Origin: a bacterium
GTDB taxonomy: Bacteria > UBA9089 > CG2-30-40-21 > SBAY01
Direction of reading: 5' to 3'
DNA: 5,640 nucleotides
Assembly: GCA_040757115.1 (NCBI GenBank)
Contig: JBFLYA010000125.1
Coordinates: 5,359 to 10,998, forward strand
The notes under the pieces were generated by a model. That model saw only the letters and a list, made by a program, of their open reading frames with translations. It was not told the origin of the DNA and searched no databases. Below are positions 2 to 5,640 of this stretch, piece after piece; within the stretch, counting starts at the first letter, position 1; each line of letters starts with the position of its first letter. The position numbers were made by a program, and so were the translations under genes.

Positions 2-2551
2 CAGAATCAATATGTCTTACAGATATTTGGCACCTATCTTAATTTATACAGAGTAGTAAATGGAAGTTGGACTCGTCTTGCTGAAGTATCAAGGACATTA
101 CCTCTTAATACCTGGGCAAATTATAAAATAATAGCCAGTGGTAACCAGATTAAGGTATATGAAAATGATAATGTAGTTGCTTTTGTTAGAGATGAATCTC
201 ATAAATTAGGCAGTATAATCCTTCAGACCTATAAAACTAAGGCACAATTTGACGATGTAAAAGTTTCAGAACTGCAAAAAACCATTTCATACAAAGAATT
301 AGATGAAATTCCAGAAGGGATGCCACTTGACCCTATTCCGTATGCTAACAGAACCTTACTCAAAGGCTCTGGAAATGCGGTTTATATGATGATGGGTGGA
401 CAGAAAAAGTATGTCCCAGCAGGCGATAGTAGTATCTGGAACTCTTATGGGTTAAATCCTGCCAAAATCACAACTATCTCAGATGAAGAATTAGCCAATA
501 TCCTCACGGCTGATGGACTACCAAGATTGGAATATTATGGAGTAGAATCACATCGAGTAAGTCATCTAAAAACACTTATCAATATTGTTGCGCCCTTCAT
601 ACCCGTCATTGGTCAGTTATACACGATGTATCAGGCATTTCAAGGTATCAAGAAAGGGGATTATTTACAAGGTGCCTTAGGATTCTTAGGCGGGCTGGGG
701 GAATTAGCTAAATTAACTCCAGCGCAACTGGCTAAATTTGGTAGCTTAGGTAAGTTAGCGGCTAACCTGAATAACTTAAATAATATCGATACTATCTCAA
801 AACTTGTTACCTTAGCTGATACCATCAATAAAATTAATTACGCCTCTATTGCCTTAACTGGTAATGACTTAACCGACGGCAGTGGCAGGAAGATAAACGG
901 TAGTCAAAGGTTTATAGCAGGGCTTAACTATATGGCTACTGACTTTAGTAAAATCTTACCAAAAGGGTTAAATAGCCTTCACCTACCCTTCTCTAACACC
1001 ATCTCACCTGGAGCACTGAAATATATGACCAAAACCTATCAATTAGGTGTAGCGGCTACTGGCAAAGAAGGGGTATTGTTTGGTAAAGAGTTATCAGATG
1101 AAGAAAGGATAAATATCGGCACCAAATTAGTTGGTTCTTCACTGGGTAATATTATTGCGAATGGAATTGACTACGCTACGGATGACAACCCAGAAACAGG
1201 AATAACAGATGCCTTAAAAGAAGAAGGGATGAGTTTTTACAAAGGTGCACAGGCGTGGAGTCAGATGGCCATCCAGGCCTACCAGAACGCCTCAAGACTT
1301 GTCCCAATGCTTAATTTTACCACTACTACTCCCAGTTCTATCCCCAAAGACCAGGATGCTTACATAAAATTAGACATTGCTCATGAGTTATGGCAAACCG
1401 TTGCCTCCATTAGAGACACAGGGAGCGATATATTTACTTCGATTAGAGATGCGGTAAGAGAATCCAGAAAGGATTATGACCTGCGGATAGCATATAAAAA
1501 GGGAGAGTTACCTGCGGATGTCCTTGCGCAAAAGCTAAATAATAAGGAGATAAATGTAGAAGATGTATACCAACTGGCGGTAACTTATGGAGCGGATGCA
1601 ACAAAATTAATAGCCCTGGCGACTAAAAACGCTACCAATCAAGAACTGATGGAGCTTATCCATAAAGATAAGGGTAGTAACAAAGAGGTATCCGAGGCAC
1701 TTAAGGGGGAAAGGAATGAGAGGATAAATGAGGCGATAAAGGAGTTTTCTTCTGCTATTACTCCTCAGTTAGCTAATGCAAGTGACAGCACAATTCCTTG
1801 TGTTGACTTTGAGAAAGGAACAAAATACTTATTGGAACTTATGCAGATGGAGTGTAAAATTAGCACTGGAGAGACAATTATTACGCCAGAGGGAAGTACA
1901 ATAAGATGCATTGGTGTAAACAATGTAGTCGCAGAGTGGTGGAAAGGGATACTTAGGGATGCAGGTATTGCTATTGAGGGAGGCATTGCCGCAGTTGGAT
2001 TTCTCCCAGGGGGGCAAGTAATTGAAACTGTTTATGACATATTTATGGCTACCGCAGGATATAGTCTTGCTGAAGGTAAACTTTCACCTGTTCAAAGGGC
2101 ATTAGTTGCTGGAGCAATATTTGTCCCTGGAATGTCAGGGGTATTAGTTAAGAATGCCGACCAGGTAGCAAAAGAGGTTTTACATATACACCATGCACTT
2201 TCCCAGTCTAAGAAGCTTGCACCCAATTTTGCCAGGGCAGGATTGGATATTGAGGAGTGGACAGTGCCATTTGCTAAATGGTTTCATAACTTAAAACCCT
2301 ATGGTATCCATACAGGACCAAACCACTGGAATAAACAATGGGAAGGATTTTTTGAGAAATATGGTGATTATGTTAAAGATACTAAAATATTAGAACAATT
2401 AAAGAAGATGGACAACGAGATCTTAGAGCAGTTAGACAACATAAAGAAACAACCTGATCTTCAACAATGGCAATTAGGCCAGATAGAAAATATGCAAACA
2501 GAGATATTAAAACAGATTGAAAAGATAAATAAAGAACTTAATCTTCGATAA
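2..2551 (+). CDS. Polymorphic toxin, 5'-truncated by window edge; SitA5/DUF2380-like C-terminal tip
   Basis: The frame is open from base 2 with no stop, so the ATG at 320 (no convincing Shine-Dalgarno) is internal and the real start lies upstream. Counting the codon at 2 as residue 1, 849 residues are visible. Residues 1-97 look like a LamG/concanavalin-type beta-sandwich (NTWANYKIIASGNQIKVY, then AQFDDVKVSE). Residues 119-168 match a short surface-protein domain (KGSGNAVY, KKYVP, TTISDEEL). Residues 192-233 are hydrophobic and pre-toxin-like (FIPVIGQLYTMYQAF). A helical linker spans about 381-569. Residues 664-713 resemble pre-toxin TG (GFLPGGQ, then EGKLSPVQRAL, then VPG). The tip has H730-H731, H762, H770, H775, W776-N777 and W780, recalling DUF2380/TIGR02269 SitA5-like toxins, possibly nucleases. 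Residues 788-849 form a charged helical tail. The immunity-like gene follows after 19 bases. Toxin architecture is fairly sure; family and activity are inferred. Confidence 0.8.
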   Translation, partial: QNQYVLQIFGTYLNLYRVVNGSWTRLAEVSRTLPLNTWANYKIIASGNQIKVYENDNVVAFVRDESHKLGSIILQTYKTKAQFDDVKVSELQKTISYKELDEIPEGMPLDPIPYANRTLLKGSGNAVYMMMGGQKKYVPAGDSSIWNSYGLNPAKITTISDEELANILTADGLPRLEYYGVESHRVSHLKTLINIVAPFIPVIGQLYTMYQAFQGIKKGDYLQGALGFLGGLGELAKLTPAQLAKFGSLGKLAANLNNLNNIDTISKLVTLADTINKINYASIALTGNDLTDGSGRKINGSQRFIAGLNYMATDFSKILPKGLNSLHLPFSNTISPGALKYMTKTYQLGVAATGKEGVLFGKELSDEERINIGTKLVGSSLGNIIANGIDYATDDNPETGITDALKEEGMSFYKGAQAWSQMAIQAYQNASRLVPMLNFTTTTPSSIPKDQDAYIKLDIAHELWQTVASIRDTGSDIFTSIRDAVRESRKDYDLRIAYKKGELPADVLAQKLNNKEINVEDVYQLAVTYGADATKLIALATKNATNQELMELIHKDKGSNKEVSEALKGERNERINEAIKEFSSAITPQLANASDSTIPCVDFEKGTKYLLELMQMECKISTGETIITPEGSTIRCIGVNNVVAEWWKGILRDAGIAIEGGIAAVGFLPGGQVIETVYDIFMATAGYSLAEGKLSPVQRALVAGAIFVPGMSGVLVKNADQVAKEVLHIHHALSQSKKLAPNFARAGLDIEEWTVPFAKWFHNLKPYGIHTGPNHWNKQWEGFFEKYGDYVKDTKILEQLKKMDNEILEQLDNIKKQPDLQQWQLGQIENMQTEILKQIEKINKELNLR
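1142..1708 (+). repeat. Conserved linker block of the toxin, repeated in the orphan module at 4960-5524
   Basis: This part of the toxin gene (residues about 381-569, counting from base 2) recurs downstream at about 4960-5524 in direct orientation. The best stretch, 1427-1650 against 5244-5467, is collinear over 224 bases without gaps, with roughly a dozen differences by eye (about 94% identity). Similarity fades after the shared KEVS-ALK residues. A less similar island lies at 1291-1345 against 5109-5160, with a one-codon length difference. A conserved block just upstream of unrelated C-termini is what allows toxin tips to be exchanged by homologous recombination in polymorphic toxin systems. 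That role is inferred here. Confidence 0.85.
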
Positions 2552-2570: not shown

Positions 2571-3248
2571 ATGTTTTATAGACTCTATCATGAGGAGAAC
2601 TATTTAGGAGCTGACTGGGCAGATGGGATGGATTTAGAACAGATTATCTGTCCAAAAGATAAACATCACAGGAGGGGAGGAAAAAGGATAGGAGATTTAA
2701 TGATAGAATTGCCATCTCCTAATATTAGAGATTTTATATGGATAGTGTTTGGTGGCGAGTGTTTAATTACGGATAAGGTAGCTGGGTTATTCAAAGAGGC
2801 AGGGTTTACAGGATATGAGTTAAAACCAGTCACTGTAAAGAAAGTAAAAAGGATGGGGAAAGAACCAAAACCAATCCCTCAATTATGGGAGATGGTAATT
2901 ACAGGCTGGGCTGGTATGGCACCACCTGAGTCTGGAATAAAACTTATAGACTCGTGTGAGGCGTGTGGAGGTTTGGAGTACTCTGGAATCACTAATCTAT
3001 CTGCCCTTATTAACCCTTCTCAATGGGATGGAAGTGATTTCTTCATGGTTTGGCCAATGCCAAGATTTATCTTTGTTACTGAAAAGGTAAAACATTTTGT
3101 AGAAGAAAAAAAACTAACAGGTTGTCAATTTATACGTGTAGAAGATTTATCGCCAACAGCAGTAGATGGATTTGGTCCTGGCAGACTTTCTTACCATATG
3201 CCAGAATCTCGAGCGCGTCTTCTTGGAGAGCCTTTAGGGATTTACTAA
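2571..3248 (+). CDS. Probable immunity protein, SitI-like CXXCG family (225 aa)
   Basis: This is a soluble 225-residue protein with no signal peptide or membrane segment, so it is expected in the cytoplasm. It has a CXXCG motif at C129-E-A-C132-G133, probably half of a metal or structural knuckle. The N-terminal counterpart is degenerate: C27-P is followed by KDKHHRRGG with no second cysteine. Two similar segments occur, CLITDKVAGLFKEAGFTGYE (64-83) and FIFVTEKVKHFVEEKKLTG (166-184). This order resembles the Myxococcus double-CXXCG family (TIGR02264, SitI6-type immunity), though the match is from memory. Its position 19 bases behind a toxin tip and its strong ribosome binding site fit a protein that binds and neutralises that toxin in producer and kin cells. 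A terminator follows at once, so toxin and immunity close the operon. The loss of one CXXCG pair is unusual for the family. Confidence 0.7.
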   Translation: MFYRLYHEENYLGADWADGMDLEQIICPKDKHHRRGGKRIGDLMIELPSPNIRDFIWIVFGGECLITDKVAGLFKEAGFTGYELKPVTVKKVKRMGKEPKPIPQLWEMVITGWAGMAPPESGIKLIDSCEACGGLEYSGITNLSALINPSQWDGSDFFMVWPMPRFIFVTEKVKHFVEEKKLTGCQFIRVEDLSPTAVDGFGPGRLSYHMPESRARLLGEPLGIY

Positions 3249-3256
3249 TAAATGCC

Positions 3257-3297
3257 AAAAGGTGGTAAAAATACCACCTTTTTGTTTATTTTTTACC
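3257..3297 (+). terminator. Rho-independent terminator after the toxin-immunity operon
   Basis: A perfect 11-bp stem (3257-3267 AAAAGGTGGTA with 3272-3282 TACCACCTTTT) closes a 4-base AAAA loop. A T-rich tract continues to about 3295. It starts 9 bases after the stop of the immunity-like gene. The A-run on the left arm could let it work weakly on the other strand too, but no gene there needs it. Confidence 0.9.
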
Positions 3298-3311
3298 GCA
3301 GAGGCACAGGG

Positions 3312-3331
3312 GTATGAGTGAGTATGAGTGA
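3312..3331. repeat. Short tandem repeat, 2 x 10 bp (GTATGAGTGA)
   Basis: GTATGAGTGA occurs twice back to back (3312-3321 and 3322-3331). It runs into the left arm of the 26-bp inverted repeat, of which base 3331 is already part. A related GAGTGAGTG string occurs in the second repeat copy near 4918-4926, so it belongs to the same dispersed element. It follows an ACCGCAGAGGCACAGG string (3295-3310), a type of sequence I associate with intergenic repeats in environmental bacteria. That association is from memory. Confidence 0.6.
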
Positions 3332-3390
3332 GGGTCACATCTTGAATTGTGAATTAACAAGGGGTAATTCACAATTCAAGATGTGACCCT
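3331..3390. repeat. Perfect 26-bp inverted repeat, dispersed palindromic element
   Basis: The left arm (3331-3356) and right arm (3365-3390) are exact reverse complements over 26 bp, separated by an 8-base spacer (ACAAGGGG). The arm reads AGGGTCACATCTTGAATTG and onward to GAATTA. No T-tract follows and a real terminator lies just upstream, so a terminator role is unlikely. A 26-bp perfect palindrome that recurs in broken form at 4904-4949 fits a REP- or MITE-like element. It could fold into a long hairpin in RNA or extrude as a cruciform. Confidence 0.9.
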
Positions 3391-3415
3391 TCTCCCCTCT
3401 GACCCTTCTCCCCTC
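3384..3415. repeat. Perfect 16-bp tandem duplication (TGACCCTTCTCCCCTC)
   Basis: TGACCCTTCTCCCCTC is repeated head to tail at 3384-3399 and 3400-3415. The first unit overlaps the end of the right arm of the 26-bp inverted repeat. The inverse complement of this pyrimidine-rich unit, with changes, appears at 4881-4910 (GAGAAGGGT twice, then GAGGGTCGC). The two therefore belong to the same dispersed family and face each other across the beta-helix gene. Confidence 0.85.
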
Positions 3416-3446
3416 GATTGCCAATAAATCCTGAGGATTATGGTGG

Positions 3447-3530
3447 GTGAGTATAATAAAAAAGAGAGAAACAAGAGTAGTCTATCTTCCCGATGAAGAT
3501 GGCTATCTTGTTGAACCAGAGTTTAATTGA
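3447..3530 (+). CDS. Possible small ORF, 27 aa, of doubtful reality
   Basis: A GTG at 3447 opens a 27-codon frame ending in TGA at 3528-3530, 11 bases before the beta-helix gene. The peptide begins MSIIKKRETRVVYLPDEDGY and ends in LVEPEFN. It has a protein-like composition and no low complexity. A GAGG at 3433-3436 sits 10 bases before the start. The frame is closed by a stop at 3432-3434. It could be a leader peptide coupled to the next gene, the tail of a decayed gene, or chance. It conflicts with the promoter-like TATAAT at 3452, which lies inside it. I do not recognise the peptide. Confidence 0.2.
   Translation: MSIIKKRETRVVYLPDEDGYLVEPEFN
3452..3457 (+). promoter_or_regulatory. Possible -10 box (TATAAT) upstream of the beta-helix gene
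   Basis: A perfect TATAAT lies 84 bases before the ATG at 3542, with TG two bases upstream, close to an extended -10. No good -35 stands 16-18 bases away; TTGCCA at 3418-3423 is 28 bases off. The upstream operon is closed by a terminator, so the beta-helix gene needs its own promoter somewhere in 3298-3541. This is the best candidate, though weak in an AT-rich spacer. Confidence 0.3.
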
Positions 3531-3541: not shown

Positions 3542-4828
3542 ATGAAGAAGGTATTTTGGATAGGTTTGGTGATATTAGGGTTGGTTTTAAGAGAAAATGG
3601 AGAAGCAAGCACAATATATGTTGATGACGATAATACATCAGAGATAGAAGATGGAACTGAAAAATATCCTTATCGCACTATCCAAGAAGGAATAGATGCC
3701 TGTTCAGATTTTGGTACAGTCTGTGTAAGACCCGGGATATATACTGGAACAGGAAACAAAAATCTAACTTGGAAAGAAAAGCATATCATTGTAAAATCCC
3801 AAAATGGACCTTTAACTACTATCATTGACTGTGAAAAAAATGGGAGAGGATTTTATTTCAATGACACAGGTCAAAATAGTAATGATATCATGGATGGGTT
3901 CACTATTAAAAATGGAAATGTTGCTGGGGAATGGCCAGAAAACTATGGTGGTGGAATCTATTGTGGAACTTTTTCCCCATCCATCATAAACTGCATAATC
4001 ACGCAAAATAGTGCTTCTACAGAGGGTGCTGGAGGTGGAATTGCATGTTTATTTTCCTCTCCAATTATCATAGATTGCATAGTAATAGGAAATAAGGCTG
4101 ATTACTTTGGTGGGGGAATTGTATGTAGTTGTTCCTCTCCCACTATCACAAACTGCATAATAAGAGGGAATAGTGCCGTCTGGGGTGGTGGAATTCATTG
4201 CAGATTTGATTCCTCTCCAACCATTACAAACTCCACAATAATGCAGAATATTGCTGGTGGTGGGGGTGGAATTTATTGTGTGAGGTTTTCCTCTCCAACC
4301 ATCACAAACTGTGTAATTATACAAAATATGGCTAACTTTGATGGTGCTGGAGTCAATTGTTATTATAATTCCTCTCCTACCATTATAAACTGCGTAATAA
4401 CAGGAAATATTGCTGATCGGTATAGTGGTGGAATCTATTGCTCTAATAATTCCTCTCCATGTATTACAAACTGCATAATAACGCAAAATAGCAGATATGG
4501 AATATATGAGGCTGATACTACAAGTGATCCTTTAACAAATTATAACTGTTTTTATAACAACACACCCTCTGATTATTATGATGAAGGCTTAAAATCTCGA
4601 ACAGTTAAATGGCTAAACATAAAAGCAGGTTTTGCAGGGAATATATCTTCTGACCCAAAATTTATTGGAAATGGAGACTATCATCTTCAATCAATCTCAC
4701 CTTGCATAGACAAAGGTTTAAATACAGCTTCGGGTATCTCTTTAACTGACAAAGACGGTAATCCTCGCATAATAAATGGCATAGTAGATATAGGTGTATA
4801 TGAGTGTAAAATGGAAGTTAAACCATAA
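3542..4828 (+). CDS. Secreted right-handed parallel beta-helix protein (428 aa)
   Basis: The N-terminus is a signal peptide: MKK, a hydrophobic core (VFWIGLVILGLVL), then RENGEAS, probably cleaved near residue 22. The mature part opens with IYVDDDN and YPYRTIQEGIDA (45-56), the usual entry of DUF1565/pectate-lyase-fold surface proteins. Seven helix rungs follow from about 144 to 330, each a variant of SSPTITNCIITQN followed by a GGGIYC-type turn. Their period is 26-28 residues. Regular N-C pairs suggest an asparagine ladder and a cysteine stack inside the helix. The C-terminal part (NCFYNN, SSDPKFIGNGDYHL, SPCIDKG, DGNPRI, VDIGVYE at 415-421) is typical of choice-of-anchor Q beta-helix proteins. 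No lyase active site is evident and no sorting tail follows, so the product is probably released or loosely surface-bound. Ligand and function are unknown. It is not clearly linked to the toxin pair, being separated from it by a terminator and repeats. Confidence 0.85.
   Translation: MKKVFWIGLVILGLVLRENGEASTIYVDDDNTSEIEDGTEKYPYRTIQEGIDACSDFGTVCVRPGIYTGTGNKNLTWKEKHIIVKSQNGPLTTIIDCEKNGRGFYFNDTGQNSNDIMDGFTIKNGNVAGEWPENYGGGIYCGTFSPSIINCIITQNSASTEGAGGGIACLFSSPIIIDCIVIGNKADYFGGGIVCSCSSPTITNCIIRGNSAVWGGGIHCRFDSSPTITNSTIMQNIAGGGGGIYCVRFSSPTITNCVIIQNMANFDGAGVNCYYNSSPTIINCVITGNIADRYSGGIYCSNNSSPCITNCIITQNSRYGIYEADTTSDPLTNYNCFYNNTPSDYYDEGLKSRTVKWLNIKAGFAGNISSDPKFIGNGDYHLQSISPCIDKGLNTASGISLTDKDGNPRIINGIVDIGVYECKMEVKP
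3971..4489 (+). repeat. In-gene tandem repeats, seven units of 78-84 bp, coding for beta-helix rungs
   Basis: The string TTCCTCTCCAACCATCACAA and variants recurs at about 3971, 4055, 4133, 4211, 4289, 4370 and 4451. Successive spacings are 84, 78, 78, 78, 81 and 81 bases, always whole codons. Each unit encodes one rung (S-S-P-T-I-T-N-C-x-I followed by a glycine-rich turn). The first half of each unit is well conserved and the second half varies in sequence and length. This looks like growth by unit duplication, and it could allow rung number to change by slippage or unequal crossing-over. Confidence 0.85.
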
Positions 4829-4880: not shown

Positions 4881-4949
4881 GAGAAGGGTTGCGAGAAGGG
4901 TCGGAGGGTCGCATCTTGAGTGAGTGTTGACAACTAAAATTGTGAATTA
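4881..4949. repeat. Second, split copy of the dispersed repeat
   Basis: GAGAAGGGT (4881-4889) and GAGAAGGGTC (4893-4902) match the reverse complement of the 16-bp tandem units at 3384-3415. GAGGGTCGCATCTTGA (4904-4919) matches 3330-3345 with one change. AATTGTGAATTA (4938-4949) is identical to 3345-3356. An 18-base segment (4920-4937) splits the arm. Only one arm is present here, so the palindrome is broken. The copy ends a few bases before homology to the toxin gene starts. Apart from this copy and a weak AT-rich hairpin, nothing is seen in 4829-4956. Confidence 0.75.
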
Positions 4950-4956
4950 GCTTATT

Positions 4957-5640
4957 AGTCTGGGTAATATTATTAGGAATGGAATTGAATACGCTACGGA
5001 TGACAAGCCAGAAACAGGAATAACAGATGCTTTAAAAGAAGAAGGAATGAGTTTTTACAAAGGTGCACAGGCATGGAGTGAGATGGCTGTCCAGGCCTAC
5101 CAGAATGCCTCAAACCTTGCCTCATATCTTCATCTACCTACTCTTGATATTTCTATCCCTAAAGACCAGGATGCCTACATAAAATTATAGATATTGCTCA
5201 TGAGTTAGGGCAAACCTTTGCTTCCATTAAAGAGACAGGTAGCGATATATTTACTTCGATTAGAGATGCGGTAAGAGAATCCAGAAAAGATTATGACCTC
5301 CGTGTAAGATATAAAAAGGGAGAGTTACCTGCGGATGTCCTTGCACAAAAGCTAAATAATAAGGAGATAAATGTAGAAGATGTATATCAACTGGCGGTGG
5401 CATATGGAGAGGATGCAACAAAATTAATATCCCTGGCGACTAAAAACGCTACTAATCAAGAACTGATGCAGCCTATCAATAAAGCCAAGAGTGGTAATAA
5501 AGAGGTATCAGACGCCCTTAAGAATGAGAGAGAGATAAGAATAGCCATACATGAGGGAGAGATTAAAGCAATACTTGAGTTAGCGAATATATCAAGCCCT
5601 GTTGTAGGAGATGGAGCACCAGAACCTAAATATGACCTTA
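4957..5640 (+). pseudogene. Headless, frameshifted orphan toxin module, running off the window
   Basis: Translation from 4960 gives LGNIIRNGIEYATDDKPET and onward, the same linker as the intact toxin from 1142. There is no start codon and a TAG lies just upstream at 4948-4950. At 5188-5190 a TAG interrupts the frame: compared with AAATTAGACATT of the intact gene, the copy has two extra bases (AAATTATAGATATT). The frame then resumes at 5190 (LDIAHELGQTFASIKETGSD) and stays open to the window end. Similarity is high to about 5524. Beyond that the residues differ (NEREIRIAIHEGEIKAILEL, then ISSPVVGDGAPEPKYDL), so a different tip probably follows. I do not recognise this tip from the part visible. 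The copy looks untranslatable as it stands, yet it could donate its tip to the intact gene by recombination downstream of the frameshift. The two-base insertion could also be a sequencing error, but the missing 5' part could not. Confidence 0.8.

What the first reader, a model, noticed from the sequence alone, without database searches (positions are those of the whole stretch)
4957..5640. Orphan toxin module with a different tip, downstream of the intact toxin-immunity pair
The block at 4960-5524 repeats the linker of the toxin gene (1142-1708), with 224 gap-free bases at about 94% identity. It then switches to an unrelated C-terminus. It has no start, a missing front, and a +2 frameshift with TAG at 5188. 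Orphan modules of this form serve as tip reservoirs in CdiA and Rhs loci. Here the same arrangement would apply to a LamG-fronted toxin in which the frameshift lies upstream of the best homology. A crossover in 5244-5467 would give an intact new toxin.
Basis: partly seen in the sequence, partly recalled or inferred. Interest (0 to 1): 0.8.

Follow-up and report, generated by a model that had tools for sequence, protein, structure and literature searches.

The report
Silent spare toxin tip, partly decayed
Behind an intact bacterial toxin gene and its protective gene lies a headless, frameshifted copy of the toxin's connecting segment that leads into a different tip with its own probable protective gene, which is a known way bacteria store or discard spare weapon tips, seen here in an uncultured lineage with an unusual toxin front and unusual candidate protective proteins.

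Summary
The window ends at a contig end. The next contig was found by a single exact 127-base overlap and supported by synteny: a sister genome at about 98% identity has the same flanking genes (dxs, pfpI) side by side, without the toxin island (about 14.6 kb). Downstream, the orphan frame runs 261 codons to a different tip ('tip B'). Then, 21 bases on, comes a lipoprotein gene with a TolB-like (PD40) propeller, itself frameshifted. Related genomes carry the same tip plus lipoprotein, other tips (AHH-type, NlpC/P60, tip C) behind the same linkers, and mosaic linkers. This is a polymorphic-toxin cassette array like the orphan modules of CDI, Rhs and MafB. Whether this orphan is a usable reserve or a decaying fossil is open; its two lesions favour fossil. 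New here: a dockerin/CBM60/concanavalin-type front and propeller lipoproteins as candidate immunity proteins. Toxicity of tip B is not shown.

The parts
2..2551 (+). 3' part of the intact toxin gene (the front lies upstream of a 100-N scaffold gap in the contig): end of a concanavalin-type domain, pretoxin region, linker, AHH/SitA6-like tip
   Evidence: ORF; PF06439 28.9 bits, PT-TG PF14449 26.1 bits (cut-off 23.5), PF09533 23.9 bits (cut-off 26.3); TIGR02269 28.6 bits (cut-off 85.75); gap C125:5259-5358
1142..1706 (+). linker of the intact toxin, the template of the repeat
   Evidence: alignment
2571..3248 (+). cognate immunity gene of the intact toxin (Imm11/double-CXXCG clan)
   Evidence: Weak Imm43/Imm11 matches; the homologue in sister genome locus L032:967-1809 (52% identical) matches Gmx_para_CXXCG PF09535 at E 6.6e-4; same position after the tip
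3257..3282 (+). intrinsic terminator-like hairpin after the immunity gene
3331..3390 (.). 26+26-base perfect inverted repeat (dispersed element), lying between the immunity gene's stop and a relic of its 3' end (3461-3530)
3542..4828 (+). right-handed beta-helix protein; also follows the AHH toxin-immunity pair in the sister genome (44% identical)
   Evidence: PF13229 E 8e-32
4903..4950 (+). interrupted copy of the same dispersed repeat abutting the orphan's 5' edge
   Evidence: sequence; copies elsewhere
4951..5190 (+). orphan module, 5' fragment of the linker (frame ends at TAG 5188-5190)
5163..5640 (+). orphan module, downstream frame: rest of the linker (to about 5523), then the start of the tip-B segment; continues without a stop to C62:786

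Best explanation
The block is a silent, displaced 3' cassette of a polymorphic toxin. It holds the shared linker, then an alternative toxin tip (tip B), then that tip's own gene for a TolB-like propeller lipoprotein, most likely its immunity protein. It lies behind the expressed-type toxin-immunity pair (AHH-type nuclease tip with an Imm11/double-CXXCG-clan protein) in an island inserted between dxs and pfpI. Mechanism: tips and their immunity genes move as units by homologous recombination within the shared linker. An incoming cassette displaces the old tip downstream, and a displaced cassette can in principle be taken up again. Shown: the repeat, the lesions, the different tip, its recurring lipoprotein partner, the empty site, other tips on the same linkers, and recombination breakpoints in linkers and module bodies of relatives. 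Inferred: toxicity of tip B, the immunity role of the propeller, and silence (no start, a terminator upstream). This copy looks more like a decaying fossil (about 0.6) than a ready reserve (about 0.4).
For: Repeat and lesions. Continuation C125 to C62 by the only 127-base end overlap found, supported by sister genome G001:C166, where dxs and pfpI are neighbours at 98% and 97% identity. Tip B followed by a PD40 lipoprotein at about 21 bases in G000, G001 (twice) and G003; tip C followed by the same at 15-37 bases in two places. Sister locus G001:C31 has the same AHH tip, immunity gene and beta-helix order. An NlpC/P60 tip (E 2e-10) sits on the same module type. Recombination: the C62/G001 linker is 97-98% identical then about 62% from the tip on, with dS 0.034 against 0.9 or more, while the genome background is about 98%. 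The G001 tip-B linker is a mosaic of the two window linkers (MaxChi permutation p 0.0004; 0.004 without private sites). In G001:C83 a 3.3-kb duplication at 98.5% ends inside two module bodies, which then run into different tips.
Against: The orphan's candidate immunity gene is frameshifted too (C62:808-970, then 996-1976), so a re-used cassette would lack a working partner unless the assembly is wrong there. Tip B has no family or structure match. No full-length toxin carrying tip B is assembled. The join to C62 lies at a contig break.
Confidence: 0.8

Rival explanations
1. Fossil only: the orphan is the displaced former tip of the toxin, no longer usable, kept by chance or for a while for its immunity gene. 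(A sub-reading of the best explanation, not exclusive of it.)
For: Frameshift and missing start in the orphan; frameshift in its candidate immunity gene; a second, more decayed module at C62:4124-4977 whose tip is lost; 'fossil' is one of the two standard models for orphans (PMC4927057).
Against: The tip-B reading frame itself is still open over 261 codons, with low dN/dS against relatives in its core (0.15-0.20); linkers in relatives are demonstrably exchanged.
Confidence: 0.5
2. Assembly artefact: the orphan and its continuation are a chimera of strains or of repeated linkers.
For: The contig ends at 5640 and a scaffold gap lies just upstream of the window; linkers are repeats that break assemblies.
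Against: The repeat itself lies well inside the contig and differs from the intact linker at 11% of sites. The 127-base overlap is unique, and the outer flanks of the two contigs (dxs, pfpI) are neighbours in the sister genome.
Confidence: 0.07
3. Not weapons: modular surface or adhesion proteins with variable ends; the propeller lipoproteins are partners, not immunity proteins.
For: The front has dockerin, CBM60 and concanavalin-type domains; tips B and C have no known toxin relatives.
Against: AHH/SitA6-like and NlpC/P60 tips, a pretoxin PT-TG domain above its cut-off, and an Imm11/CXXCG-clan partner are toxin-system hallmarks.
Confidence: 0.12
4. The orphan is expressed as it stands, by programmed frameshifting or an internal start.
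For: The downstream frame is open from 5163 to the end of the tip.
Against: GTG 5397 and ATG 5466 lack ribosome-binding sites, the 5' fragment has no proper start of its own, and a terminator-like hairpin lies upstream.
Confidence: 0.04

Closest known systems
Orphan rhs-CT/rhsI modules (Salmonella LT2, PMC3967940)
   Same: Displaced 3' fragments behind the main pair, no translation start, part of the conserved region kept, own immunity gene; recombination with the main gene shown experimentally there.
   Different: No RHS repeats here; the front is dockerin/CBM60/concanavalin-type; here the orphan and its candidate immunity gene carry frameshifts; no experiment.
Orphan cdiA-CT/cdiI modules (CDI; PMC4927057)
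   Same: Tandem displaced toxin-immunity cassettes on an island; 'fossil' and 'repository' models apply directly.
   Different: No filamentous-haemagglutinin repeats or CdiB partner seen in the toxin or its neighbours.
mafB-CT silent cassettes of Neisseria (PMC4287609)
   Same: Cassettes without an initiation codon, each followed by an immunity gene, sharing a stretch with the full-length toxin.
   Different: Different front, different tips, lipoprotein propellers in the immunity position.
SitA6/SitI6 of myxobacteria (TIGR02269/PF09533 with PF09535; PMC12077181, PMC8546572)
   Same: AHH-type tip of the intact toxin and the clan of its partner gene.
   Different: Scores below the family cut-offs; the toxin is a large multidomain protein without an evident lipobox at its N-terminus.

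Membership tests
Polymorphic toxin system with standalone cassettes (Zhang et al. 2012, PMC3482391) | Constant front or linker joined to different C-terminal tips | tested here: met
   AHH, B, C and NlpC/P60 tips behind homologous module bodies
Polymorphic toxin system with standalone cassettes (Zhang et al. 2012, PMC3482391) | Immunity gene directly after each toxin tip | tested here: inconclusive
   By sequence for the AHH pair; by position only for tips B, C and NlpC/P60
Polymorphic toxin system with standalone cassettes (Zhang et al. 2012, PMC3482391) | Recognisable toxin domain in the tips | tested here: inconclusive
   NlpC/P60 above cut-off, SitA6/DUF2380 below cut-off, tips B and C none
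Polymorphic toxin system with standalone cassettes (Zhang et al. 2012, PMC3482391) | Cassettes lacking front and start near the full gene | tested here: met
Polymorphic toxin system with standalone cassettes (Zhang et al. 2012, PMC3482391) | Export route of the toxin | not tested
   No secretion-system search was made; the N-terminus MATNNVVLDPKLLLTTHQ has no evident signal peptide or lipobox
Rhs | RHS repeats in the toxin | tested here: not met
   No RHS family in Pfam or NCBIfam scans
CDI (CdiA) | TpsA/haemagglutinin domains with CdiB | tested here: not met
   Absent from the toxin and its neighbours
SitA6 (TIGR02269) | Score above the curated cut-off | tested here: not met
   28.6 bits against 85.75
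SitA6 (TIGR02269) | Transfer by TraA/B outer-membrane exchange | not testable with these tools
   Experimental property
Pretoxin PT-TG (PF14449) | Score above the gathering cut-off | tested here: met
   26.1 bits against 23.5 for the intact toxin

The most novel reading that the evidence does not exclude
TolB-like (PD40) and similar propeller lipoproteins are a new class of immunity proteins for tips that act in the periplasm or on the envelope (B, C, NlpC/P60), in a dockerin/CBM60-fronted polymorphic toxin family of an uncultured lineage. The localisation logic is consistent: the AHH nuclease tip is paired with a partner lacking a signal peptide, the other tips with lipoproteins.
Probability: 0.4. 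Interest if true: 0.6.

Novelty: new variant of a known kind. Interest (0 to 1): 0.45.

Why it matters
It extends orphan-cassette toxin arrays, known from bacteria such as Salmonella and Neisseria, to an uncultured lineage with a carbohydrate-binding/dockerin type of front. A pair of sister genomes at about 98% identity gives an empty site and sharp linker/tip breakpoints, so cassette exchange can be mapped and dated. The recurring tip-propeller pairs offer testable new toxin and immunity families.

Tried and rejected
Structure of tip B: mostly helical, mean pLDDT 63, no match in solved structures at E below 1. Structure of the AHH-type tip: mean pLDDT 41, unusable. Sequence search of solved structures for tips B and C and the AHH-type tip: nothing credible. 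Search of 84,980 species genomes for tip B: only one contig, SBAY01000226.1, labelled Nitrospira sp. Bin_21_1, of the same length (3,167 bases) as G003's. Search of all 19 genomes held from the phylum: tip B only in G000, G001 and G003. The far end of the second full-length toxin (C106) could not be joined to a tip. Papers: no report found of TolB-like immunity proteins or of dockerin-bearing polymorphic toxins in the library held; absence there is weak evidence. Programmed frameshifting and assembly error were considered and judged unlikely.

Full report
What was checked. The window is bases 5359-10998 of contig C125 in a 4.3-Mb genome of 462 contigs. It starts directly after a 100-N scaffold gap (C125:5259-5358) and ends at the contig end. 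The orphan carries a 2-base insertion at 5187-5188 that creates TAG at 5188-5190. Its 5' part is open from 4951 only, its downstream frame is open from 5163, and its only candidate starts lack ribosome-binding sites. A terminator-like hairpin follows the intact pair's immunity gene.

The intact pair. The ORF 2-2551 is the 3' part of a gene that very likely begins at C125:2881 (dockerin, CBM60 and concanavalin-type domains) beyond the scaffold gap. Its end holds a pretoxin PT-TG domain above cut-off and a SitA6/DUF2380-like tip below cut-off. SitA6 toxins of myxobacteria hold AHH nucleases, and their partners belong to the Imm11/double-CXXCG clan (PMC8546572, PMC12077181). The next gene, 2571-3248, gives weak Imm43/Imm11 matches, and its homologue in the sister genome matches double-CXXCG PF09535. 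So the intact pair is best read as a nuclease toxin with its immunity protein.

What lies beyond 5640. The last 127 bases of the window are identical to the first 127 of contig C62 and to nothing else in the genome. Independent support comes from sister genome G001 (about 98% identical over dxs, over rpmA-obg-proB and, by dS 0.049, over ilvB). There, dxs and pfpI are neighbours on one contig. In this genome dxs lies at the start of C125 and pfpI lies on C62. The island between C125:2108 and C62:5797 (about 14.6 kb, not counting the unknown length of the scaffold gap) is thus present here and absent at that site in G001. On C62 the orphan frame continues to base 786 (261 codons on that contig) with a tip unrelated to the AHH-type tip. 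A lipoprotein gene with PD40 (TolB-like) repeats starts at 808. Its frame breaks near 960 and resumes to 1976. A further, more decayed module lies at C62:4124-4977.

Relatives. Tip B recurs in G001 (two copies) and G003, each followed by a PD40 lipoprotein; the G003 copy of that lipoprotein gene is broken as well. Tip C recurs twice in G001, on two different linker types, again followed by PD40 lipoproteins. An NlpC/P60 tip is followed by another lipobox-bearing, propeller-like protein. The AHH-type tip, immunity gene and beta-helix gene recur in G001:C31 in the same order. Lipobox assignments were read by eye from the N-termini, not predicted by a program.

Evidence for tip exchange. Between G000 and G001 the tip-B module is 97-98% identical in DNA up to the end of the linker segment (dS 0.034, like the genome background) and falls to about 62% from the tip onward (dS 0.9 or more). 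The linker of the G001 tip-B module resembles the orphan's linker on its left and the intact toxin's linker on its right, before returning to the tip-B segment. A MaxChi permutation test gives p 0.0004, or 0.004 when sites private to the orphan are left out. In G001:C83 a 3.3-kb duplication at 98.5% ends inside two module bodies, which continue into tip C and NlpC/P60 respectively. Fast divergence of tips under selection could add to the fall in identity, but would not by itself explain synonymous divergence some twenty times the background.

How it most likely works. Cassettes of linker, tip and immunity gene are exchanged by homologous recombination in the shared linker, as argued for polymorphic toxins in general (PMC3482391) and shown for orphan Rhs modules in Salmonella (PMC3967940). 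For displaced modules the CDI literature gives two models, fossil and repository (PMC4927057), and MafB cassettes without initiation codons are a close parallel (PMC4287609). Here two lesions, one in the orphan and one in its candidate immunity gene, favour a fossil in this genome, while the open and conserved tip frame and the mosaics in relatives show that such cassettes do move in this lineage.

Limits. The background identity rests on a few genes. Comparison by dS uses the Nei-Gojobori count on short segments. Toxicity of tips B and C, the immunity role of the propellers and the export route are untested.

Noticed in passing
window 3331-3390 and 4903-4950; L030:2600-2660 and 8930-8990: A dispersed short repeat (TCACATCTTGAATTGTGAATT and its inverted copy; 17, 11 and 2 copies in G000, G001 and G003, none for the reversed control pattern) abuts the 5' edges of several orphan modules. 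It may mark or promote the junctions.
   Followed up: partly
window 3249-3530: A relic of the immunity gene's 3' end (VVYLPDEDGYLVEPEFN, stop at 3530) lies beyond the terminator and the hairpin repeat; the sister genome's gene is continuous over this part (280 aa against 225 aa). The window's immunity gene seems to have lost its C-terminus at the element.
   Followed up: partly
window 3542-4828; L032:1832-3103: A secreted right-handed beta-helix protein follows the AHH toxin-immunity pair in both genomes; its role is unknown.
   Followed up: partly
L030:1-3307 and 6329-9635: A 3.3-kb duplication at 98.5% identity in the sister genome's array, ending inside two module bodies that run into different tips.
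   Followed up: yes
L020:2-4171 (minus strand): A second full-length toxin gene (over 1390 codons, dockerin front) runs off its contig in linker type 2; its tip is unknown.
   Followed up: partly
L077, L079, L080, L081: Copies of the dispersed repeat often sit in short arrays in which the GACCC/GGGTC part recurs with variable short spacers.
   Followed up: no
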